This document shows, one piece after another, positions 11,625-48,169 of a stretch of DNA of 64,000 bases (position 1 is its first letter; each line of letters begins with the position of its first letter). The notes under the pieces were generated by a model that was not told where the DNA came from, did not search any database, and saw nothing but the letters and a program-made list of their open reading frames with translations. The position numbers and the translations under genes are program-made. The stretch is from Salinibacter altiplanensis (GTDB lineage: Bacteria; Bacteroidota; Rhodothermia; Rhodothermales; Salinibacteraceae): positions 204,789-268,788 of the forward strand of contig NZ_NCQY01000023.1 in the NCBI RefSeq assembly GCF_002894645.1, in the 5' to 3' direction.

Positions 11625-12869
11625 CTACTCGTACCGGAGGGCGTCGATGGGATCGGCCGTGGCGGCCTGCCAGGCCGGCGCGATGCCGAACAGAATGCCC
11701 ACCCCGACGCAGATGCCGAAGGCGAGCCCCACCGTCTGGGCGGGCAGAGACGCGGTCAGCCCCAGTGCACTCACCCCCATCGCCCCGAGGGCCGAGAGCC
11801 CGAGCCCGAGGACGCCCCCGATCAGACACACGATGACCGCCTCGACGAGAAACTGAAACAGGATGGTGCGGCGTTTGGCCCCCACTGCCTTGCGGATGCC
11901 GATTTCTTTCGTCCGCTCACGCACCGACACGAACATGATGTTCATCACACCGATGCCCCCCACCACCAGGGCAAGGCCCGTCAAGAACAGCCCCACCCCG
12001 TAAATTGCGATCCGGACGCTCGCGAAGCTGTCCATGACCTGCTGCTGGTCGTTGATCGCAAAATTATTTTCTTCCCCCGGCCCCACCCCCCGAACCGTTC
12101 GCACAATGCCCGTAAGCTCCTCCTCGGCCCGGTTCATCAGGGCCGAGCTCTCTACCTTCGCCATGACGGTGACCCCGTCCTGGCGGCTGACGCCGAACAC
12201 CTTGTCGTAGGTACGAAACGGCATCAAAATGCGCTCGTCCGGCGAGCCGGGCCCCCCAAACATGCTCTCGCCCTTTTCCGTCTGCACCCCAATCACTGTA
12301 CAGGGGACGCCCCCCATCTTGAGTTCTTTTCCGAGCGGCGTGACCGCCGGAAAGAGCTCCTCGGCGACGGTGGCCCCGATGACGCAGACCTGTCGCCCCG
12401 CCCGCTCTTCAGACCGGGTGTAGAATCGCCCCCGGCGGAGCTCCACGTTGCGGATGCGCCCGTACTGGGGCGGCGAGCCCATGATTTCGGCCTCGACCTC
12501 TTGTCCGCGGTAGGTTGTCTGCCGGTCCGTGTCGATCATCGGCGCCGCCGTCTCGGCGAAGCGCGAGCGCTCCTGGATGGTCTGGGCCAGAGCCGGCTGA
12601 ATGGCCGGGCGATTGCGAAGACGCCACCACTCGCGGTCGGTGTTCTGGCCCCACGGAAACTGATCGACGTACAGCACGTCCGTCCCGAGCTGCGAGAGGG
12701 CCTTCTCGAACTCCTGATCCAACCCGTTGATGACGGTCGCCATCAGCGTCACCGCCGCAATGCCAATGATGACCCCCAATGTGGTAAGCGTCGACCGCAT
12801 CTTGTTGGCCCAGATGGCCTGTCCAGCAATGCGGATCCCCTCCACGACTTCGAAGACAAAACGGCGCAT
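11625..12869 (-). CDS. MacB-like ABC transporter permease (first of the pair)
   Basis: A 414-residue permease with the same architecture as its neighbour: N-terminal helix LTTLGVIIGIAAVTLMATVI, MacB periplasmic domain, and a C-terminal three-helix FtsX domain with GGIGVMNIMFVSVRERTKEI and closing ADPIDALRYE. The periplasmic domain differs clearly from the second permease, which argues for two specialised subunits, not a recent duplication. It starts the five-gene efflux cluster (permease, permease, TolC, adaptor, ATPase), all on the minus strand with short gaps. Confidence 0.9.
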   Translation of the reverse strand: MRRFVFEVVEGIRIAGQAIWANKMRSTLTTLGVIIGIAAVTLMATVINGLDQEFEKALSQLGTDVLYVDQFPWGQNTDREWWRLRNRPAIQPALAQTIQERSRFAETAAPMIDTDRQTTYRGQEVEAEIMGSPPQYGRIRNVELRRGRFYTRSEERAGRQVCVIGATVAEELFPAVTPLGKELKMGGVPCTVIGVQTEKGESMFGGPGSPDERILMPFRTYDKVFGVSRQDGVTVMAKVESSALMNRAEEELTGIVRTVRGVGPGEENNFAINDQQQVMDSFASVRIAIYGVGLFLTGLALVVGGIGVMNIMFVSVRERTKEIGIRKAVGAKRRTILFQFLVEAVIVCLIGGVLGLGLSALGAMGVSALGLTASLPAQTVGLAFGICVGVGILFGIAPAWQAATADPIDALRYE

Positions 12870-13029
12870 GGACTCTCACGAGCGTTCAACAGACACGAAA
12901 TGGGAGCGTCCTTCCCCCTCGGCGGGCCGCTCCGCTGGAACCGGAGATCAGCCCATGGGGGCACAGGCTGCGGGCCTTCTTCAAGGTGCGCATACATTCC
13001 AACACCAGTAGGCCCTGCGTGATGCCGCC

Positions 13030-14211
13030 CTATCGACGAATTGCCCGGTTCGCCCGACGAATCGAAGCCACCGACCCACGAGCGGTCGGCACGTCGCGGT
13101 CTGCCTGGATCGTCTGCCGGAACTGCTCGCGGCCCACCGTGAGCTGCGCGTGCACGACCGGGCCGTCTCGCTCGATGCTCGCATCATCGAGCAGGCCCCG
13201 CAGGCCGTTGGCGTCCGGGGCGTCTCCGGACAGCCGGACCGCCGCCATCACCCCCTTCGACACGTCGACGACATTGGAGGCACTGGTCTCGTCCCGCATC
13301 GTGAGGTAGGCCTCCCCCTCTACGGATTCGGGGCTCAGGGTCACCGAGACGGCCTGCTCGCGCACCTGGCGCCGCAGTCGTTCGAACCGACTGTCGTCCG
13401 GGGCCTCGACCTCAAACGCCGGCGGGTCGTCAAGCCCCAACATGCGGTCAGCCCACGCGCCGAGCATCCGCTTCAGCCCGGCCCCGTTGGGAGCAGGGGC
13501 CGTCGCGGTGTCGCCTCGTTCCCCCACGGAGTCGCGAAGCGCGGTCTGCAGGACGTCGCGCCCCACGAGCCACGCGGTACTGCCGTGGCCCACCCGCTCC
13601 ACGAGCGTCATGTAGGGATCGTTGCCGCGAAGGCCGGGGGCCTCGTCTTGGTGCCGATCCACCATGGCTTCAACGCGCCCGGCCTCCGGCGCCACGGCAA
13701 TTACCCCGTCCCGCACAAACCCCAGCGTGAGGGTGTCGGGGGCGGCGGCGTCCGACGGCGTTCCGGCAACGAGGTGATAGACGGGCACCTCCCCGTAGGT
13801 CGTCGTGTAGCCGGCCTCCGGGACCCGGTCCAGGTACCGGTCCATCTGGGCCGGGGTCAAGTCCGCAAACACCACCGCGCTGAACGATTGGGCGCGCCCT
13901 CCGGTCCCGTACACCGCCTTCAGGTCCGCCTCCGGCTTCATGCCCGTCGCGTCCAGGAAGGTGCCCAGGCGGGTGCCCTCTGCTCTCCGGAGTTGTTCGC
14001 GCAGGCCCATGTCCGTCCACGCCCCAAGCTGCCCCGTCATCGTTTCCAAGTCAACCATGCCGGCAAAACGAGGCGTCTCCGGGAGCAGGGCCGTCGCCTG
14101 CCGCGTTTGCGTAGGGACGCGGTCGGTGAGACTCATGTAGGGCTCGCAGCCGGCAAGCCCCACGGCAACGACGACAAGAAGGCCCCAGAGCGGTGGGCGG
14201 CGAGCAGACAT
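13030..14211 (-). CDS. Predicted lipoprotein of unknown function
   Basis: A 393-residue protein with a signal peptide ending in the lipobox LAGC, so probably lipid-anchored in the envelope. The mature protein has alternating helices and strands with repeated hydrophobic patterns (FSAVVFADLTPAQMDRYL, GFVRDGVIAVAPEAGRVEAMV). Overall it looks like a substrate-free scaffold similar in style to DUF3352-like proteins, but I do not recognise a family. Many Asp/Glu residues fit a halophile. It is encoded 160 bp upstream of the efflux operon on the same strand and might be its first gene. A second in-frame start at 14235 would add eight residues before the signal peptide. Confidence 0.7.
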   Translation of the reverse strand: MSARRPPLWGLLVVVAVGLAGCEPYMSLTDRVPTQTRQATALLPETPRFAGMVDLETMTGQLGAWTDMGLREQLRRAEGTRLGTFLDATGMKPEADLKAVYGTGGRAQSFSAVVFADLTPAQMDRYLDRVPEAGYTTTYGEVPVYHLVAGTPSDAAAPDTLTLGFVRDGVIAVAPEAGRVEAMVDRHQDEAPGLRGNDPYMTLVERVGHGSTAWLVGRDVLQTALRDSVGERGDTATAPAPNGAGLKRMLGAWADRMLGLDDPPAFEVEAPDDSRFERLRRQVREQAVSVTLSPESVEGEAYLTMRDETSASNVVDVSKGVMAAVRLSGDAPDANGLRGLLDDASIERDGPVVHAQLTVGREQFRQTIQADRDVPTARGSVASIRRANRAIRR

Positions 14212-16348: not shown

Positions 16349-17626
16349 TCACGGCTGCACACTTGGGGCCGACGCCGCGGGGGCCTCTCGCTGCGTCGGC
16401 GAGGGGGACAGTGCATCGCGGGGGCTGCACGGAATCCGAATCGTCACGCGTGCCCCGCCCTCCGCAGCGGGTCCGAGCTCAAGGGCGTGCGCTTCGCCGT
16501 AAAGCGTGTCGAGCCGACGCTTCGTGGTGGAGAGGCCCACCCCTTCGCTCTCCTCCAAGAGGGTTTCGGGGGCCTCCGAGAAGCCCGGGCCGCTGTCGGC
16601 CACGGCGAGCTCGACGCCCTTCTGGTCGTGGGACGAGGCCGGACGGGCAATCACGCGCACCGTCCCGGGCTCGGCGTGGGGAGCGATCCCGTGTCGAACA
16701 GCGTTCTCCACGAGGGGCTGGAGCAGCAGGTAGGGCACCGCCACCTCGCTGACGGCCGGGTCGACGTCAATTTCGGTCCGCAGGCGGTCCTCGAACCGAA
16801 TCTCCTCGATCTCAAGGTAGCGCTCCACCAGGTCAATCTCTTCCCGTAGTGGCACCGTCTGGACGTCCGCCCCCTGAAAGGTGGCCCGCAGCATGTCGCT
16901 CAACAGGCGAAGCGTACGGCCGGCCTTTGCCGTTTCGCCGCCCCGCACCAGAACCGTGATTGCGTTCAGGGTGTTAAACAGAAAGTGTGGGTTCACCTGC
17001 ATGCGCAGCGCCTGCAGCTGGGCCTGAGCCAGTTCGGCCTGCAGCGCCTGGGTCCGGGCTTCCTGCTGCCGGGAGCGCACGAAGTGCTCGTACGTGAAGC
17101 ATAGTGCCGCCACGATGAAGTACGTGAAGTAGTCGGCAATGAAGCGCCGCACGAGAAAGACGGCGAGCCGCCATCCGCCGAGGCCGTAGGGGTCGACTGC
17201 CCGAAAGTCGAACGACGTCGTGAAGTTGGGATAGATGCCCTCGCGGGTGAGGGTGGCGACGGCGAAGATGCCGCGCTCGACGGCCACATGGACGACGGCG
17301 ATGCCCCCTCCAATCGCCAGCATCGCACCCACACCGTGCTTCAGCCCGGCGCGCACGTCGGCCCAGCGGAAAAGCGCGAGCACGACGGGCAGGAGCAGGG
17401 CCCAGAGGTGCAGTCGTGTCCACAGCCCCACGGCGAACGTGAAGAAGGCAAACGGCACGCGGCCCCACAACTGCTGGCCGGGGGTCGCCCGGAACCATTC
17501 GACGAGCCACGGCCCGGTCCCTTCGATGAGCAGGAGGGCGCCCAACAGGGCCGCGGTGCCGTACTGCAGGTAGCGCCGCGTGAGCCGGCGAAGGGCAGAC
17601 AACTCCGGGGTGGCCGGCACGGCCAT
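16349..17626 (-). CDS. LytS-type sensor histidine kinase
   Basis: A 425-residue membrane kinase. The N-terminal half holds about four or five transmembrane helices without a large sensor domain. The His_kinase block has the phospho-acceptor in LRMQVNPHFLFNTLNAI, and the ATPase part shows the N-box VENAVRHGI, G1 DSGPGF and GVGLSTTKRRL. It pairs with the downstream LytTR regulator in the usual order. The ATG at 17626 is chosen because further upstream the frame runs into the tRNA-Ser gene. Acting signals are unknown; kinases of this type often sense membrane or cell-wall state. Confidence 0.92.
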   Translation of the reverse strand: MAVPATPELSALRRLTRRYLQYGTAALLGALLLIEGTGPWLVEWFRATPGQQLWGRVPFAFFTFAVGLWTRLHLWALLLPVVLALFRWADVRAGLKHGVGAMLAIGGGIAVVHVAVERGIFAVATLTREGIYPNFTTSFDFRAVDPYGLGGWRLAVFLVRRFIADYFTYFIVAALCFTYEHFVRSRQQEARTQALQAELAQAQLQALRMQVNPHFLFNTLNAITVLVRGGETAKAGRTLRLLSDMLRATFQGADVQTVPLREEIDLVERYLEIEEIRFEDRLRTEIDVDPAVSEVAVPYLLLQPLVENAVRHGIAPHAEPGTVRVIARPASSHDQKGVELAVADSGPGFSEAPETLLEESEGVGLSTTKRRLDTLYGEAHALELGPAAEGGARVTIRIPCSPRDALSPSPTQREAPAASAPSVQP

Positions 17627-26403: not shown

Positions 26404-26832
26404 CTATGCCTCTATCTCCTCTCCGTCGAGTATGTCAACCGGACGCACATCCCAGAGAAGCATCGTCTCAATGTCAACGTAGTCTTCCTCTACCGCCTCC
26501 TCTTCGTCGCCGTAGTCGTCGACGAACTTGTAATCCCCGTAGGTGGATCGCTGAAAAGGCGGGAGGCGATGCCACTCCGTGCCCTCCCGATCGACGAAGT
26601 GGTCCGGGAACGGGCTTTCGACCTCGTAGCTGGGATGGTAGGAATGGTAGGTCTTGCGCGCCTCGTGGATGGCAGCGCGGCGGGCCCCGGCCTTCGTTCG
26701 GCTTTCTCCCTCCACACTAAACGGAGAAATTTCGATCTTGGCCGTGATGAAGCCGTCGTCGTTCTCGTAGTAGGTCGGCCGCATCACTTCAAAGTCACTC
26801 GGCTCGGGATATGCACTACTTTCGTCGGCCAT
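26404..26832 (-). CDS. Acidic hypothetical protein, 142 aa
   Basis: A very acidic soluble protein with no Cys. It contains a GFITAKIEISPFSVEGESRT strand block followed by a basic-helical RRAAIHEARKTYHSYHPSY segment, then FVDREGTEWHRLPPF and a C-terminal run rich in Asp and Glu. The ATG at 26832 is preferred over 26907 because the extra residues are low-complexity. I recognise no domain. The neighbours give no hint. Confidence 0.6.
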   Translation of the reverse strand: MADESSAYPEPSDFEVMRPTYYENDDGFITAKIEISPFSVEGESRTKAGARRAAIHEARKTYHSYHPSYEVESPFPDHFVDREGTEWHRLPPFQRSTYGDYKFVDDYGDEEEAVEEDYVDIETMLLWDVRPVDILDGEEIEA

Positions 26833-27480
26833 GGGAAGGGGACGGGTCCAGATGAGGGGTGCGTGTGACGGCGGCCTCGTAGAGTTGCCGCTGACTATCA
26901 TTTTCAATACGACCGCCTTCTAGAGAGGATTCCGGGGGAGTCGAGGCCGTCGCTGCTCTCGTTCAGAATTCGCACAAGTCGTCCGGGGGCGCCTCCCCAC
27001 TCACGACCCTGCCGGGGCTGACAAAGACTACGCGCCCCAACCCCCCAGTGACCTGTGGACGGCAATGTGGATAACTTTTCCCCGCGGTCTTCCGCGTACC
27101 AGAACGAGAACAATAACGGATTTTAATCACGGAGTGTACCCCGAAAATCCCGTTTTTGCGCCGACAAGATAGGTTCCGTTATTTATAAAAGTGGGGCCCG
27201 TTCGTGGACGCGTTGTGGACAACAAAGCCTCCCTGGCACGGCGACCGCTCTGGGGAGGATCCAGGCACCGTCCGGACAGTCACTGAGTCTGTCGTCAACG
27301 GCCCACCGCGTTCGCCTCTTCTCCAATTCGTGCGTGGGCTCTTTTGTGTCGGCGACGATCTGTCGTCTCTCAAGCATCGGACGTTATGCCTGCGCCGTTT
27401 CACCTGTCTATGGCATCCGCCCCTGGCATCGATGCCGAGGGTGGAAGGCTCATCCCCTACCATCGCACACTGATCCTGCC
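26833..27480. other. Intergenic region with a DnaA box and AT-rich stretch
   Basis: The 648 bp have no credible gene. A perfect minus-orientation DnaA box, TGTGGATAA, lies at 27066-27074, and a one-mismatch copy TGTGGACAA at 27214-27222. Between them is an unusually AT-rich tract (about 27100-27190; TAACGGATTTTAATCACG and CGTTATTTATAAAAG). It may be a DnaA-binding regulatory site or promoter for the downstream three-gene module. It is far weaker than the origin candidate near 45 kb. Confidence 0.45.
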
Positions 27481-32112: not shown

Positions 32113-33693
32113 ATGGATCAGTCCGCCGACCACGCCTGGAATGAATGTCTCGACATCATTCGGGACAACGTGAGCCGTCAGAGCTTCACGACCTGGTTTG
32201 AGCCACTGGAGGCTCAGTCTCTGGAGGAGGCGGACGACCTGCACAAGCTGACGGTTCAGCTCCCGAGCCAGTTTTACTACGAGTGGATCGAGGAGCACTA
32301 CTTCTCTCTGCTCCGGAAGACCGTCACGCGGGTGCTCGGCCCCCACGGCCGCCTGTTCTACGACGTGGTGATTGAGCAGGACGACCCGGAGGCCTCCGAG
32401 CAGAGGGGGGCCTCCATGCAGCTGCCTGCACGCCCCTCCGGCCCGGACCCGCCTCAGGAATCATCGGACGCGTCCACGGAACCGTCCGGGTCCCCGGAGG
32501 CGTCTGCCCCGCCCCCGACGCCTTCCTCCTCCTCGACCACTCCGCCCGGAGACAAGCCCCGCCCCGACGACACACAGTCGGAGCCCGCAGGAGAGGAAGA
32601 CAAAAGCGCCCCTCCGGTCCAGAACCCGTTTGCCATTCCCGGCCTCAAGGACACCGCGGTCGACAGCCAACTCAACGACAGCTACACGTTTGACCGCTTC
32701 ATCAAGGGAGCATGCAACCGCCTGGCCCGCAGCGCTGCCCGCTCCATCGCCACCGATCCCGGCGAGACGAGCTTTAACCCGTTTCTCGTCTACGGCGGTG
32801 TGGGGCTTGGCAAGACTCATCTCATTCAGGCCATCGGGAATCATGTCGCGGGGCACAGCCCCTCCAAGACCGTCTTCTACGTCTCCAGTGAGCGGTTCAC
32901 CACCGAGTTTGTCCAGTCGATCCAGGAAAACCAGATTGGCGAATTTTCGACGTTCTACCGTCAAGTCGACGTGCTGATCGTCGACGACGTACAGTTTTTC
33001 GGCGGCAAGGAAAAGACCCAGGAGGAGTTCTTTCACATTTTCAACGCCCTCCGGCAGGCAGGGAACCAGATTGTGCTGTCGGCCGACCGGCCGCCACGCG
33101 AGATCGACGGCCTCGAGGAACGCCTGCTGTCCCGGTTTCAGTGGGGCCTTTCCGCCGACCTGAAGCCTCCAGGACTGGACACCCGCATCTCCATTCTTCG
33201 CCGAAAGGCCGAGGATGACGGAATCGACCTCGACGACGAGGTCGTGGAGTTGATCGCCCGGAGCATCGAAAGCAACATCCGTGAGCTCGAAGGGGCGCTG
33301 ATCCGTCTCCTTGCCCACGCCACCCTCCACCAGCTCGACATTACCCTCGACCTTGCCGAGGAGGTGCTCCACGACCTCTTTCAGGAGCAGGAGGCCCTCC
33401 TCACAGTCGATGACATTCAACGCATCGTCTGCGGGCACCTTGGCGTCTCACAGGAAAAGATGCGGGGCAAGACCCGAAAGCGAGACATCGTCCGCGCCCG
33501 ACAGATCGCGATGTACTTTACCAAGAAGCACACCCAGCACTCCCTGAAAGACATCGGCCTCCACTTCGGCGGGCGGGACCACTCGACCGTTATCCACGCC
33601 AACAACGCGGTGGAGGACCGGATGGCCGACGACGAGTCGTTCCGGGAGACAGTAGATGCAATCGGGCACAAGCTCGAACGCCACGGCCGGTAG
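32113..33693 (+). CDS. dnaA: Chromosomal replication initiator protein DnaA
   Basis: A 526-residue initiator. Domain I (about 1-85, DHAWNECLDIIRDNVSRQSF) recruits the helicase. A long Pro/Ser-rich acidic domain II (about 95-185) is disordered and larger than in E. coli. The AAA+ core (about 190-410) has Walker A GGVGLGKTH near 228-236 and Walker B LIVDDVQFF near 286-294, and sensor II SNIRELEGAL. Domain IV ends with the DNA-binding signature GGRDHSTVIHA near 486-496. It should bind the boxes near 45 kb and open the duplex. dnaN is 129 bp downstream. The long Pro/Ser linker fits a halophile but is not rare. Confidence 0.97.
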   Translation: MDQSADHAWNECLDIIRDNVSRQSFTTWFEPLEAQSLEEADDLHKLTVQLPSQFYYEWIEEHYFSLLRKTVTRVLGPHGRLFYDVVIEQDDPEASEQRGASMQLPARPSGPDPPQESSDASTEPSGSPEASAPPPTPSSSSTTPPGDKPRPDDTQSEPAGEEDKSAPPVQNPFAIPGLKDTAVDSQLNDSYTFDRFIKGACNRLARSAARSIATDPGETSFNPFLVYGGVGLGKTHLIQAIGNHVAGHSPSKTVFYVSSERFTTEFVQSIQENQIGEFSTFYRQVDVLIVDDVQFFGGKEKTQEEFFHIFNALRQAGNQIVLSADRPPREIDGLEERLLSRFQWGLSADLKPPGLDTRISILRRKAEDDGIDLDDEVVELIARSIESNIRELEGALIRLLAHATLHQLDITLDLAEEVLHDLFQEQEALLTVDDIQRIVCGHLGVSQEKMRGKTRKRDIVRARQIAMYFTKKHTQHSLKDIGLHFGGRDHSTVIHANNAVEDRMADDESFRETVDAIGHKLERHGR

Positions 33694-33822: not shown

Positions 33823-34956
33823 ATGAAATTTACCGCCTCCAGTGCCGACCTTCTCGAGGCGCTCAACACCGTCAAGGGCGCCGTTCCGTCGAAGAGCACA
33901 ATGCCCATTCTGGAGTGCATTCTCTTTGAACGGGACGGGGACACGTTGCGTCTGAGCGCCACCGACCTCGAAATCTCAATCATCCAGGCCGTGCCCGTCC
34001 AGTTCGAAAAGAACGGCACGCCGGAGAGCACCCCCATCGCGGTGCCGGCCCAGCGGCTGATTGACACCCTGCGTGCGTTGCCGGACATGCCCATCGAGTT
34101 CGCGGCGGACAGCGACTTCGAGATTCGGATGGACACCGATCAGGGCCACTACAAAATGGTGGGCCACGACGGATCGGACTATCCGGAACTGCCGGAGCTC
34201 GAGGAGCAGCACGAGATCAACGTAGAAGGAGGGCTTCTGGGCCGCTCCATCGACAAGACGGCATTTGCCGTGAGTCAGGATGCCCTGCGCCCCGCCATGA
34301 TGGGCGTGTACTTTCAGGTCAGCGAGGAAGAAACCTCCGTGGTGGCGACCGATGGACACCGGCTCGTGCAGCTCACCCTGCCGGAGCTTCGGGCCGACAC
34401 GTCCGCCGACTTCATCGTGCCGGAGAAGGCCACCAAGCTGGCCGGACGCATCGTGGAGGACGACGAAATCTGCACCGTCCGGGTGGACGAGAGCCACGTG
34501 AGCTTCGAATTCGGCGATTCCCGTGTGCTGGCCCGCCTGATCGACGAGACGTATCCCAACTACCAGTCCGTCATTCCGGACGGGAACGACCGCAGCCTGG
34601 TCGTGAACCGTGAGGACATGCTCAACGCCGTCAAGCGCGTGGGGCTGTACTCATCCAGCATGACAAATCAGATTCGGCTCGACATCACGGCTGATACCGT
34701 TACAATCTCGGCGGAGGACGTGGAGCGCTCCAGCGAGGCCGAGGAGACCATCCACTGCGACTACGACAACGAGCCGATGGAGATCGGATTCAACTCAGAG
34801 TACCTTACCGAGGTGCTCGGCAACGTGGGGTGCGACGAAGTGGTCTTCGAGCTCAGCTCCCCGAACCGGGCCGGCATCGTCCTGCCCCGCGAGGAGACCG
34901 ACGAGGAAGACATCCTCATGCTCATCATGCCGGTGATGCTCAACACCTATGCCTAA
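33823..34956 (+). CDS. dnaN: DNA polymerase III beta subunit (sliding clamp)
   Basis: A 377-residue protein of usual clamp length with three repeated beta-clamp domains. It starts MKFTASSADLLEALNTVKGAV and ends with the conserved LIMPVMLNTYA tail. Conserved segments include LRLSATDLEISI, VATDGHRLVQL and FNSEYLTEVLGNV. It forms the dimeric ring that tethers the replicative polymerase. It lies downstream of dnaA; recF does not follow, unlike the E. coli order. Confidence 0.97.
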   Translation: MKFTASSADLLEALNTVKGAVPSKSTMPILECILFERDGDTLRLSATDLEISIIQAVPVQFEKNGTPESTPIAVPAQRLIDTLRALPDMPIEFAADSDFEIRMDTDQGHYKMVGHDGSDYPELPELEEQHEINVEGGLLGRSIDKTAFAVSQDALRPAMMGVYFQVSEEETSVVATDGHRLVQLTLPELRADTSADFIVPEKATKLAGRIVEDDEICTVRVDESHVSFEFGDSRVLARLIDETYPNYQSVIPDGNDRSLVVNREDMLNAVKRVGLYSSSMTNQIRLDITADTVTISAEDVERSSEAEETIHCDYDNEPMEIGFNSEYLTEVLGNVGCDEVVFELSSPNRAGIVLPREETDEEDILMLIMPVMLNTYA

Positions 34957-42313: not shown

Positions 42314-42583
42314 GGCGGTGGTTCTGGAGGTGGTGGTGCGTCCGGCAATTCAGAGCAGCGTATCGCCGAACAGCGTCTCCCCCCAGAGGTTCATTCAGGG
42401 CACCTGGAGCGTTGGTCCCTTTCACAGAAGTGCGGAGAGCAGGCCTTCGCCCCGCGGGCCGAGCCGAGCGGGCTCCCGGGCTTGACAATATTTTCAGGGG
42501 GATTGCTCACCACGGGGAACTGTTTGGCGCCTGCACTGTCTCACTCGGTACGACATTTCGCGGGGATTCCCCGCACCGACAAA

Positions 42584-42680
42584 GGGCAAGTCCCGCACGG
42601 CCAGCTCCCTCTGAACCCCGTCAGGGCCGGAAGGCAGCAGCGGTAGGAGGTCGCAGCGGCGCGCTGCGGGTCGCTTGCCC
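42584..42680 (+). ncRNA. ffs: Signal recognition particle RNA (bacterial small type, 4.5S)
   Basis: The universally conserved SRP core is present: GTCAGGGCCGGAAGGCAGCA, with the symmetric and asymmetric loops that bind Ffh. The ends GGGCAAG and CTTGCCC pair to close a roughly 97-nt rod. A T-rich tract follows. SRP RNA works with Ffh to deliver membrane proteins to SecYEG, and yajC follows 140 bp downstream. No Alu domain is present. Confidence 0.95.
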
Positions 42681-42690
42681 TTTTTCTTTT
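42674..42690 (+). terminator. Terminator of the SRP RNA
   Basis: The closing CTTGCCC arm of the SRP RNA is followed at once by TTTTTCTTTT, so the RNA's own terminal stem serves as an intrinsic terminator. Confidence 0.7.
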
Positions 42691-44667: not shown

Positions 44668-44832
44668 ATGTCAAGCTCCCAGATCTTTCAGGCCATCTAC
44701 GCGCTCATCGCCATCTTCAGCGCGTCGCTCACAGTGATCCGCCTGCAGGCCGGAGACTGGATGGCCGCATTATGGCCCGCCCTCATTGCCGGCTTCTGTA
44801 TCTATCGTCTCTTTACGGTGTCAGGGGACTAA
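44668..44832 (+). CDS. Small two-helix membrane protein, 54 aa
   Basis: MSSSQIFQAIYALIAI begins a first helix that runs to LTVIRLQAG, and AALWPALIAGFCIYRLF is a second. There is no known family. The ATG at 44668 is chosen over a GTG at 44641. It sits between the hairpin element and the origin candidate, and codon use fits a real gene. Function unknown. Confidence 0.5.
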   Translation: MSSSQIFQAIYALIAIFSASLTVIRLQAGDWMAALWPALIAGFCIYRLFTVSGD

Positions 44833-44889
44833 TCCCTTCCAGCAAATCGTCCTCGGCAGGGTGGTCCTTCCCCTATGCGTCTGAGAATG

Positions 44890-45310
44890 CCCTTTATCCA
44901 CAAGATTGTGGATAACTCGTGGATAAGTGGGGGATAACGTCTGGATAATCTGTGCACGAGAATTGAGATTCTGTCGCCCGTGCATAACTGCCCCGGATAT
45001 CCACACCGGTCCCCACCTTGTGCACACTGTGGACGAGTGTTCATAACTAGGCCCGTGAGATCCCCCATTCTCTCGTGGATTACTGTGGACACGTGGAAAA
45101 CTACGCCTTCACCGGCCTTCAGCGCCGTGTACCGGCTTTCAGTAGCCGTCCGTTTGTGGATAACCTCGTGAATGACTGGGGAGACTATCCACATCCCAGC
45201 GGCACGGATGTGGGCAACTCAGTTATCCACATTTCCACACGCCTAACAACAACAACCACATCTTTTAAAAAATCCCAAGTGCTTTATTCATACTAGGGAG
45301 TGTGGATAAC
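44890..45310. other. oriC: Probable chromosomal replication origin (oriC)
   Basis: Five perfect DnaA boxes are present: TTATCCACA at 44894-44902 and 45223-45231 (plus), and TGTGGATAA at 44907-44915, 45155-45163 and 45301-45309 (minus). One-mismatch boxes lie at 44918-44926, 44940-44948, 44997-45005 and 45185-45193, with further weaker ones. An AT-rich tract at 45259-45294 (CATCTTTTAAAAAATCC) would be the unwinding element. No other part of the window has comparable density. It sits between a small membrane protein and comEC, about 11.2 kb after dnaA. Confidence 0.82.
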
Positions 45311-45481
45311 TTGACGCTCAGGCAGCGCCCGACCAGGAGAGGCCACATGTCAGGAGGTTCTTCTCTGGAAAACTGATACACGGTTTTGTATCGGTTGAGT
45401 CTGAAGGATATTCCCATTTAGGAATAAGTAAGGTGTCTAGTGACACCGGCACGAAAGCCCCTGAACGAGAAGATTTATATC

Positions 45482-47953
45482 CTACTTCCACCGTGCTTGC
45501 CATACTTCCTTTCCGTCTGTGCGAATCCACACTGCACCCTTTTTGCTAATGCTGTGTACTTGCTCTGATCGCTCTTGCCACCTGCGAATCACCTTTTCAC
45601 TGGGCATATCATATTGAGTGCTTCTACCTGTACTTACCACCGCATGCGTTCGCTCTGGATCGCCCACTAAGTGCACGAACTCTGGGTGGCTACTGGTCTC
45701 GGATCCGTGATGCGGAACCTTTACTACGTGTCCTCCCAGATTCTCTCCGTATGTTCGAACCAGGTCTTGTTCGGCGAGCCTTTCAATGTCTCCAGGGAGA
45801 AGAACATCCACACGTCCATACTGGACACGAAGCACGACAGAAGCATCATTTTCTCCCCCAAAGTTGTCATGGGCAGGCGGACTAAGGACCCTTGCCCGAA
45901 CGGATGCCCCCAGCCGAAGTGTGTCTCCCCGCCGGGCGGCCTGATGAGGAATGTCCTCTTGATCGAGAAGACGACGCGTTTCATCGTACAACTCGGTGTC
46001 CACCGGGTACCCATTGTGCACCAGGCGACCCACCTGCACTTCTCTCAAGAGAGTCGGGACTCCCCCTAAGTGATCCTGGTCGGAATGAGAGACAACAACG
46101 AGGTCCAGTCGTTGGATGCCTTGTTGCTCCAGAAAGGGAAGGACCGTGAACTCTGCGGCCGCCCCACTCGGGGATCGTGGCCCCGTGTCAACAAGTACGT
46201 GCCGCCCTGAGGGCGTTTTGAGAAGGGCAGCGTCTCCCTGTCCCACGTCGAAGAACACGAGGTCGAGGGTGGGCCTTGCTCCGGGTCCAACCACAGATCC
46301 CCAGACAGCCACGGTTAGGAAAAGAGAGCTCGCAATTACCCAGCGCCACCGGAGACGGGGGCGTGGCCACTGTGCGATGGCGACCAGTCCGGCCCCAAGG
46401 GCCCCTAGCTTCCAGAAATCCGGGGTTGACATTCGGATTCCTGCCCAAGAAAACCAGTCGGCTCCGTACCGGGACGTGGCAAGAAGCCCCTGCAGAAACA
46501 GATCCGCTGCACTTCCGAAGGAGGCCGCCGCCGCGGTCCACAGGCCCCCCATGGTGACGGTTACAATTGCGGACGTAAGGGCCAGTCCCGTGCACGGAAT
46601 CCCAATCATGTTCAGGAACAGGCCGGCAGCGGACACCCACCCAAAGTGGTAGAGAAGAACGGGAGCGGTTCCCAAGATGGCAGCCGCCGAGGCCGTACCG
46701 GTCGAGACAAGCCAGTCCAGAGACGCAGAATTCCGATACCGCTCCGGCACCCCCTCACGAAATCGAGGATTGAGGGCCACGATGCCCGCCACTGCCGCCA
46801 TCGATAACTGAAACCCGGCGTCAAACAACATGGGAGGTCGCACCGCAAGCAGCACCAGGGCCGCACTCCCAAGTGTGTTCAGTGGATGAGCCGACCGCTG
46901 AAAAAAGATGCCTCCGATAAACAGGGTTGCCATGACCACAGCCCGAACGACCGACGGCCGCCCTCCCGTCAACAGCATGTAGATGATCAAGACGAAGACC
47001 GTAACCACGGCCCGCACAACCTCCACCGTGCGCCACCGCAACCGAAAGCGCATCAGGAATGGGCGGAGCAGCGTATAGAGCACCATGCCCACCAGGAAGA
47101 CGTGCAGGCCCGACACGGCGAGGAGGTGCATGAGTCCGGTTTTTGCGAAGCGATCTCGCTGGGCATCGGTAATGCGGCTCCGGTCCCCCAGCAGCAGTGC
47201 CCGGAGCACGGCGCGCCCCTCCCCACTTGGCACGTACCGGGCGATCTGCCGACGGATGTGCCCGCGGACCGAAACGAGCGCATCTTGCAGTGCCCCACGC
47301 CGATTTCCCAAAACGATGACATGGTCGGGCGCATCGACGTACAGAGTGCAGCAAATGCCCCGTCGGGACAAGTAGGCACTGTAGTCAAACCCCCCCGGAT
47401 TGCGACGCCCCGAGGGACGTCGCAAAGACCCGTGGAGCCGAACCATGTCTCCCTGATGGAGTTTTGGGAAAGACGGAGCCGCGTTGGCCCAGGGAGACGG
47501 CTTCAGGGTCGCCCGAACCTGCCCGTCTACGGCGGCTGTGTCGCGGGGGCCGAAGAGGGTGTCGGTCTCCAAGACAAATCGCGTGGCCTCCTCGGTCTGT
47601 TGAGGAGCGTTCGTGATGGCTCCCTGCACACTCACCGCGTTCCGGCTTTTCTCAGCTGCGGGAGCGAGGCCTCGGGGGGAGCGGGCCTCGTAGGCGGCAT
47701 GGCGGGCCCCGCCGGCAGCACACATGACCAGCATGACGGCAAAGGTACGGCCGAGAGGGGCAAGGGTGACAAGCCGGGTCCGGTCCCACCACTGCATCCC
47801 TACGAACAGCGCGAGCCCACCCCCAACGCCACCAAGCCAGAGAAAGAAAGAGGCCGCAACGAGCCTCGACGCCCCCACAATTCCAAGTGCGAAGGCCCCC
47901 GCCACACAGAGGGCCGGATACGCACTCCATTGAATCGACGAGTCGGAACGCAT
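45482..47953 (-). CDS. comEC: ComEC/Rec2-family DNA-uptake channel protein
   Basis: An 823-residue membrane protein of usual ComEC length. The N-terminal part has membrane helices, an OB-like region (RATLKPSPWANAAPSFPKLH) and the Competence core (about 230-500: MHLLAVSGLHVFLVGMVLYT, LTGGRPSVVRAVVMATLF). A C-terminal metallo-beta-lactamase domain follows, with DVGQGDAALLKTPSGRHVLV, SHSDQDHLGGV and KVPHHGSETS. It should carry single-stranded DNA across the inner membrane in transformation. The start at 47953 is taken; 47965 would add four residues. GC content falls sharply in the 3' third, next to the origin. Confidence 0.92.
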   Translation of the reverse strand: MRSDSSIQWSAYPALCVAGAFALGIVGASRLVAASFFLWLGGVGGGLALFVGMQWWDRTRLVTLAPLGRTFAVMLVMCAAGGARHAAYEARSPRGLAPAAEKSRNAVSVQGAITNAPQQTEEATRFVLETDTLFGPRDTAAVDGQVRATLKPSPWANAAPSFPKLHQGDMVRLHGSLRRPSGRRNPGGFDYSAYLSRRGICCTLYVDAPDHVIVLGNRRGALQDALVSVRGHIRRQIARYVPSGEGRAVLRALLLGDRSRITDAQRDRFAKTGLMHLLAVSGLHVFLVGMVLYTLLRPFLMRFRLRWRTVEVVRAVVTVFVLIIYMLLTGGRPSVVRAVVMATLFIGGIFFQRSAHPLNTLGSAALVLLAVRPPMLFDAGFQLSMAAVAGIVALNPRFREGVPERYRNSASLDWLVSTGTASAAAILGTAPVLLYHFGWVSAAGLFLNMIGIPCTGLALTSAIVTVTMGGLWTAAAASFGSAADLFLQGLLATSRYGADWFSWAGIRMSTPDFWKLGALGAGLVAIAQWPRPRLRWRWVIASSLFLTVAVWGSVVGPGARPTLDLVFFDVGQGDAALLKTPSGRHVLVDTGPRSPSGAAAEFTVLPFLEQQGIQRLDLVVVSHSDQDHLGGVPTLLREVQVGRLVHNGYPVDTELYDETRRLLDQEDIPHQAARRGDTLRLGASVRARVLSPPAHDNFGGENDASVVLRVQYGRVDVLLPGDIERLAEQDLVRTYGENLGGHVVKVPHHGSETSSHPEFVHLVGDPERTHAVVSTGRSTQYDMPSEKVIRRWQERSEQVHSISKKGAVWIRTDGKEVWQARWK

Positions 47954-48169
47954 GAAGCGGGACACTACCGTCCAGGAGAAGCGGGCTCGAAAGACACATT
48001 GCTCCCGGAGGGCCTAACATTTTCTCACGGCACGGCAAAAGCGACCCTAAATCCAAAATTGAGGGAATCCAGGTACAGGCCCGAACCTGCCTTCGCCGCA
48101 GAAAATAAAAGCTGTCTCCGCACAACTGCGGCTTCCCCACCCCCCCTATCTTCCGGACGGTCCTTCGCC

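What the first reader, a model, noticed from the sequence alone, without database searches (positions are those of the whole stretch)
44890..45310. Probable replication origin lies about 11 kb from dnaA, beside comEC
Five perfect DnaA boxes and at least four one-mismatch boxes lie within 420 bp, in both orientations, with an AT-rich tract at the comEC side. The dnaA leader and the dnaA-dnaN gap have no perfect box. In many bacteria oriC adjoins dnaA, but here it sits between a small membrane protein and comEC. The boxes are seen directly; origin function is inferred.
Basis: partly seen in the sequence, partly recalled or inferred. Interest (0 to 1): 0.68.

Follow-up and report, generated by a model that had tools for sequence, protein, structure and literature searches.

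The report
Replication origin beside comEC, not dnaA
This stretch is very probably where the bacterium starts copying its chromosome; in its relatives the start site stays beside the comEC gene while the initiator gene dnaA wanders, and its DNA-opening motif carries an unusual base change.

Summary
In detail: five perfect and four one-mismatch DnaA boxes lie in 416 bp, and only 11 perfect boxes exist in the 3.59-Mb genome. I judge it the chromosomal origin (oriC).

The GC-skew minimum lies 4.2 kb from the cluster on the window's contig. In congener G009 it lies 4.7 kb from the orthologous cluster although dnaA is about 150 kb away. The cluster flanks comEC in 22 of 23 family members examined. 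A tandem-box plus DnaA-trio unwinding core lies within 1.5 kb of comEC in 15 of the 25 order members with a pattern hit. So the comEC link is lineage-wide and dnaA is what moves. Skew in three other families does not mark the site cleanly.

Two features look new. In this genus and four other family members the in-frame trios are 3'-GTT/ATT, not 3'-GAT: the central adenine, important in B. subtilis (PMC10721633), has become thymine. A GRTAY-N8-RTAYC palindrome tracks the origin, even where the origin is 68 kb from comEC. Origin function itself is inferred, not tested.

The parts
44833..45481 (.). intergenic region holding the proposed oriC, between a 54-codon ORF (44668-44832) and the 3' end of comEC
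   Evidence: AT 49%
44894..44902 (+). perfect DnaA box
44907..44915 (-). perfect DnaA box
44918..44926 (-). DnaA box, 1 mismatch (TTATCCACG)
44940..44948 (-). DnaA box, 1 mismatch (TTATCCAGA)
44997..45005 (+). DnaA box, 1 mismatch (ATATCCACA)
45155..45163 (-). perfect DnaA box
45185..45193 (+). DnaA box, 1 mismatch (CTATCCACA)
45223..45239 (+). tandem co-oriented boxes TTATCCACA + TTTCCACA that anchor the unwinding core
   Evidence: conserved in the family and order
45240..45243 (+). GC-rich spacer CGCC
45244..45258 (+). trio array TAA CAA CAA CAA CCA; on the complementary (trio) strand 3'-ATT-GTT-GTT-GTT-GGT, central bases T,T,T,T,G instead of A
   Evidence: compared with CTA-type (3'-GAT) arrays of relatives
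45260..45273 (+). AT-rich tract ATCTTTTAAAAAAT, candidate unwinding element
   Evidence: conserved in the genus
45301..45309 (-). perfect inverted DnaA box closing the unwinding core on the comEC side
45371..45396 (.). palindrome AACTGATAC-N8-GTATCGGTT (GRTAY-N8-RTAYC), best match of its profile in contig C19
45409..45426 (.). inverted repeat TATTCC-N6-GGAATA, recognisable in most genus members
45482..47965 (-). comEC, the gene that neighbours the origin across the family and much of the order
32113..33693 (+). dnaA (initiator), 11.2 kb from the cluster, no box in its leader
33823..34956 (+). dnaN

Best explanation
The region 44894-45426 is the chromosomal replication origin. DnaA binds the cluster of boxes. 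From the tandem boxes at 45223-45239 a DnaA filament extends into the adjacent trio-like array and the AT-rich tract at 45244-45273, opens the duplex there and lets the helicase load; an inverted box at 45301 bounds the opened part. dnaA is not part of the locus: in this order the origin is mostly tied to comEC, and dnaA lies at variable distance. Shown: boxes, core, conservation, skew, parS distance. Inferred: DnaA binding, melting site, firing.
For: Box cluster far above chance and unique in the genome for perfect boxes. GC-skew minimum at window 49554 within C19; G003 minimum 17420 with cluster at 12671-13086 and dnaA at 2-1573; G009 minimum 2539911 with cluster from 2544646 and dnaA at 2391320-2392903, the skew falling straight past dnaA. 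Whole-chromosome sampling of G003 shows just two sign changes, one between 0 and 0.18 Mb and one between 1.80 and 1.95 Mb. parS-like cluster 46-52 kb away in G003 and 54-62 kb in G010. Cluster beside comEC in 22 of 23 family members examined, 12 of 12 in the genus. Tandem boxes + spacer + trio array in frame; CTACTAC-type core within 1.5 kb of comEC in 15 of the 25 genomes with a hit out of 60 searched. 0 of 30 dnaA leaders had a convincing box+trio core (one weak hit, G021).
Against: No replication data. The skew minimum is offset 4-5 kb towards comEC in all three congeners, and fitted breakpoints lie 3-19 kb off. In G033, G037 and G047 the skew minimum is 120, 100 and 66 kb from the candidate core. 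G023 (62% complete) has no cluster beside comEC. The trio array does not meet the published central-A rule (PMC8287927).
Confidence: 0.93

Rival explanations
1. The cluster is a DnaA-titrating or DnaA-regulating site (like E. coli datA or DARS) and the origin is elsewhere, e.g. at dnaA.
For: Other conserved DnaA-box elements without an unwinding core do exist in these genomes. Several relatives carry boxes in the dnaA leader (G014, G016, G018, G021, G022).
Against: Skew in G009 excludes dnaA by about 148 kb. This cluster has the densest boxes plus tandem boxes, array and AT tract; dnaA leaders lack such a core.
Confidence: 0.04
2. The boxes serve transcription control of comEC or of the small ORF upstream.
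For: They abut both genes.
Against: They lie at the 3' ends of both genes, not at a promoter. comEC of five genomes in families f7, f10 and f12 has no cluster in the 0.8 kb next to its 3' end (L015, L019, L021, L023, L030), and in G037 the core with its palindrome sits 68 kb from comEC.
Confidence: 0.01
3. A remnant plasmid or mobile-element origin inserted beside comEC.
For: Box clusters also occur in plasmid origins (general knowledge).
Against: Orthologous position and sequence across 12 genus members and most of the family, and agreement with chromosomal skew and parS.
Confidence: 0.01

Closest known systems
E. coli-type oriC placed away from dnaA
   Same: A single DnaA-box cluster with an AT-rich side, tens of kb or less from dnaA (recalled for E. 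coli)
   Different: Neighbour gene is comEC; no IHF/Fis sites or GATC array were looked for
Basal unwinding system (BUS) of B. subtilis oriC (PMC6669920 title and abstract start; PMC8287927 and PMC10721633 passages)
   Same: Tandem co-oriented boxes, short GC-rich spacer, in-frame triplet array, AT-rich DNA
   Different: In this genus the triplet array has T, not A, at the centre of trios 1-4
datA / DARS sites of E. coli (recalled; PMC4585315 abstract start only)
   Same: Clusters of DnaA boxes
   Different: Skew, parS distance and an unwinding-type core mark this one as an origin

Membership tests
bacterial chromosomal oriC | cluster of DnaA boxes above chance | tested here: met
bacterial chromosomal oriC | lies at the GC-skew minimum | tested here: met
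   within 5 kb in 3 of 3 congeners; not met in 3 of 3 genomes of other families
bacterial chromosomal oriC | near the parS cluster | tested here: met
   46-71 kb in G003, G010, G015; on another contig (C11) in the window's genome
bacterial chromosomal oriC | conserved position and sequence in relatives | tested here: met
bacterial chromosomal oriC | replication starts there in growing cells | not testable with these tools
   needs marker-frequency data
BUS (DnaA-box + DnaA-trio) | DnaA box(es) followed within 16 bp by a triplet array | tested here: met
   spacer 12 bp from the upstream box
BUS (DnaA-box + DnaA-trio) | at least three trios with central A (3'-NAN-5') | tested here: not met
   central bases T,T,T,T,G in the window; rule from PMC8287927 passages
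BUS (DnaA-box + DnaA-trio) | DnaA residues that contact the trio (B. subtilis N187, I190, I193, R202, E228; PMC10721633) | tested here: inconclusive
   counterparts T264, V267, I270, S279, E305; T at the N187 position also occurs in CTA-type relatives
E. coli datA/DARS | acts on DnaA nucleotide state | not testable with these tools
   none

The most novel reading that the evidence does not exclude
In the Salinibacter-like lineage the unwinding core has changed its code: the central adenine of each DnaA-trio, which B. subtilis DnaA captures, became thymine while boxes, spacing and reading frame stayed. Either DnaA here reads another base, or the filament now enters from the inverted box at 45301 and binds the other strand, whose array is made only of A and C. 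A companion palindrome (GRTAY-N8-RTAYC), found only near the origin, would be the site of an unknown initiation regulator.
Probability: 0.3. Interest if true: 0.72.

Novelty: new variant of a known kind. Interest (0 to 1): 0.5.

Why it matters
Genome records and tools often set the start of a chromosome at dnaA; in this order that would misplace the origin by 10 to 230 kb. The species series from CTA-type through mixed to CAA-type arrays gives a natural test of how DnaA picks the strand and bases it captures when it opens an origin. The origin-tracking palindrome points to an undescribed origin-binding factor.

Tried and rejected
It was useful only in that L192 has the contig length of G058:C1 and is titled Rhodothermales bacterium, and L191 has the length of G022:C250 and is titled Bacteroidetes bacterium GSL.Bin3.

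Co-change of DnaA contact residues with trio type was looked for and not found. An RNA hairpin or comEC terminator reading of the palindrome was dropped because the palindrome also occurs 96 bp from the G037 core, which is 68 kb from comEC, and because its two halves vary without strict pairing (judged by eye). parS in the window: none with up to 3 mismatches.

Skew in G033, G037 and G047 was meant as further support and did not give it. Literature: searches found no paper in the held open library that describes an origin in Salinibacter or links comEC with oriC; DoriC itself could not be queried, and the terms sought (Salinibacter, comEC and others) do not occur in its 2018 paper.

Full report
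SETTING. The window is G000:C19:204789-268788 of a 3,586,011-bp draft in 30 contigs. One genus relative, G003, has a main contig of 3,551,823 bp, which I recall as the size of Salinibacter ruber DSM 13855; the name comes from no call. I use g1 for the window's genus and f1 for its family, as labelled.

OBSERVATION. Five perfect and four one-mismatch DnaA boxes in both orientations lie at 44894-45309. Perfect boxes number 11 in the whole genome and 5 are here; the probability bound is 4e-13. The dnaA leader has none. Genes were confirmed by NCBIfam and Pfam.

IS IT THE ORIGIN? Sampled 20-kb stretches of G003 show positive GC skew in the 10 stretches from 0.18 to 1.80 Mb and negative skew in the 9 from 1.95 to 3.39 Mb, and in the first stretch. 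Fine profiles put the minimum at window 49554 for C19 and at 17420 for G003, 4.2 and 4.3 kb past the cluster on the side away from dnaA. The best discriminator is G009 of the same genus, where dnaA (2391320-2392903) and the comEC cluster (2544646-2545047) are about 150 kb apart: cumulative skew falls past dnaA and turns at 2539911. In all three the minimum is shifted 4-5 kb towards comEC, also where the map is inverted, so a local gene effect is likely; fitted breakpoints are coarser, at window 41962, G003 18676 and G009 2525500. parS-like sites cluster 46-52 kb from the site in G003, 54-62 kb in G010 and 71 kb in G015.

RESULTS AGAINST. In G033 (f8) the minimum is at 1034510 and the candidate core at 1154650, with a second dip near 1180 kb; in G037 (f12) the minimum is 2494744 and the core 2394121; in G047 (f10) the minimum is 299345 and the core 233466. 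dnaA is not at the minimum in any of them either (171 kb off in G037, 137 kb in G047, 109 kb in G033). Recent inversions could explain this, but I did not test that. G023 (f1, 62% complete) has no cluster beside comEC.

CONSERVATION. ComEC was found in 55 of 60 relatives. A cluster of at least 5 boxes with up to one mismatch lies beside its 3' end in 22 of 23 f1 members examined: 21 of 22 and G014. Within the genus this is 12 of 12; G002 had no comEC match. G024 adds a further case. Outside f1 clusters lie beside comEC in G033 and in G036, G043 and G053. dnaA is 10-13 kb away in the same layout in G003, G004, G005, G010, G014, G015 and G021, but about 25 kb away beyond the other end of comEC in G008, about 150 kb in G009 and about 230 kb in G033. 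Thus the origin follows comEC, not dnaA.

THE CORE. Aligned origins share TTATCCACA-TTTCCACA-CGCC, then an array of triplets and an AT-rich tract, then an inverted TGTGGATAA. This has the build of the B. subtilis basal unwinding system: tandem boxes, spacer of at most 16 bp, trios of consensus 3'-GAT-5' (passages of PMC8287927). A search for TCCACA-N2-6-CTACTAC in 60 order members hit 25 genomes; in 15 of them the hit is within 1.5 kb of comEC, in G057 6 kb, in G037 68 kb, and in the rest on other contigs. Six of those remaining hits (G001, G029, G051, G052, G053, G055) have 0-2 boxes around them and look like chance; G035 and G056 have 6 and 3. The reversed-pattern control hit about as often over whole genomes, so the nearness to comEC, not the number of hits, is the evidence.

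THE TRIO CHANGE. In frame with the boxes, the first three trios have central A in 15 parsed origins of the CTA type, the first two in G026, G020 and G030, and the first one only in the mixed G015 (G015 read by eye). In the genus and in G013, G016, G018 and G022 the first three trios have central T, and trio 4 too except in G016 and G022: 14 parsed, and G005 and G018 read by eye, 16 in all. The CTA group was partly gathered by searching for CTACTAC, so its uniformity is not independent evidence; the f1 members were gathered by comEC alone. On a ComEC tree of 26 rows the T type needs 2 changes (shuffled mean 8.2), so it is a lineage trait of few events. In B. subtilis, replacing the central A by T or G slowed strand separation in vitro and T or G in trios 1-3 supported slower growth and less initiation than C (passages of PMC10721633). 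A perfect inverted box about 57 bp into the core is present in 12 of 14 parsed T-type origins but in 1 of 18 parsed A-type ones. That pattern is what a strand switch would leave, but the events are few and related. DnaA contact residues do not separate the types.

THE PALINDROME. RRTAY-N8-RTAYY occurs within 700 bp in 23 of 26 comEC flanks with a box cluster and 1 of 23 without (3.5% in shuffles); the three misses are G036, G043 and G053. The pattern was drawn from some of these sequences, so this is partly circular. A profile that leaves the window's own site out still scores that site 27.3, against 13.6 for the next site in C19; one of five shuffles reached 19.1. It is also 96 bp from the G037 core, 68 kb from comEC, and next to the cores of G048, G045 and G032. 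It was not seen near the cores of G035, G056, G047, G046, G030 and G039. I read it as a protein-binding site of the origin; the protein is unknown.

MECHANISM. Shown by sequence: boxes, core, conservation, skew, parS. Inferred: DnaA assembles on the boxes, loads onto the core and opens 45244-45273 for helicase entry. Which strand it grips in this genus is open.

VERDICT. oriC, confidence 0.93. Placement away from dnaA is a known kind of arrangement; the comEC link across the order, the central-T trios and the palindrome are the new parts. None of the searches listed in Tried and rejected found them described, within an open-licence library only.

Noticed in passing
27066-27222 (window, - strand); G000:C19:56939-57094: A second kind of conserved DnaA-box element: two co-oriented boxes about 147 bp apart flanking an inverted repeat ATAACGGA...TCYGTTATTGT. 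In G000, G003, G004, G009 and G010 there are two such copies, one of them 17-21 kb from oriC; it could be a DnaA-regulating (datA/DARS-like) site.
   Followed up: partly
26404-26907 (- strand): Small acidic protein of unknown family, conserved next to the proximal paired-box element in many of the relatives examined.
   Followed up: partly
L093:8304-9989 (G000:C29); G003:C1:1718062-1719720: A second full-length DnaA (about 43-50% identical to the first) in the 13 genomes of the genus; in G003 it lies near the terminus side of the chromosome. Within f1 it occurs in all lineages with central-T trios and, apart from a 39% paralogue in G024, not in the others.
   Followed up: partly
45409-45426: A second inverted repeat TATTCC-N6-GGAATA next to the origin palindrome, kept in most genus members.
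   Followed up: no
42577-42684: Small SRP RNA gene, Rfam RF04183.
   Followed up: no
G037:C1:2323613-2328859: In G037 comEC directly follows dnaA and dnaN, while the candidate origin core lies 68 kb away from comEC at 2394121.
   Followed up: partly
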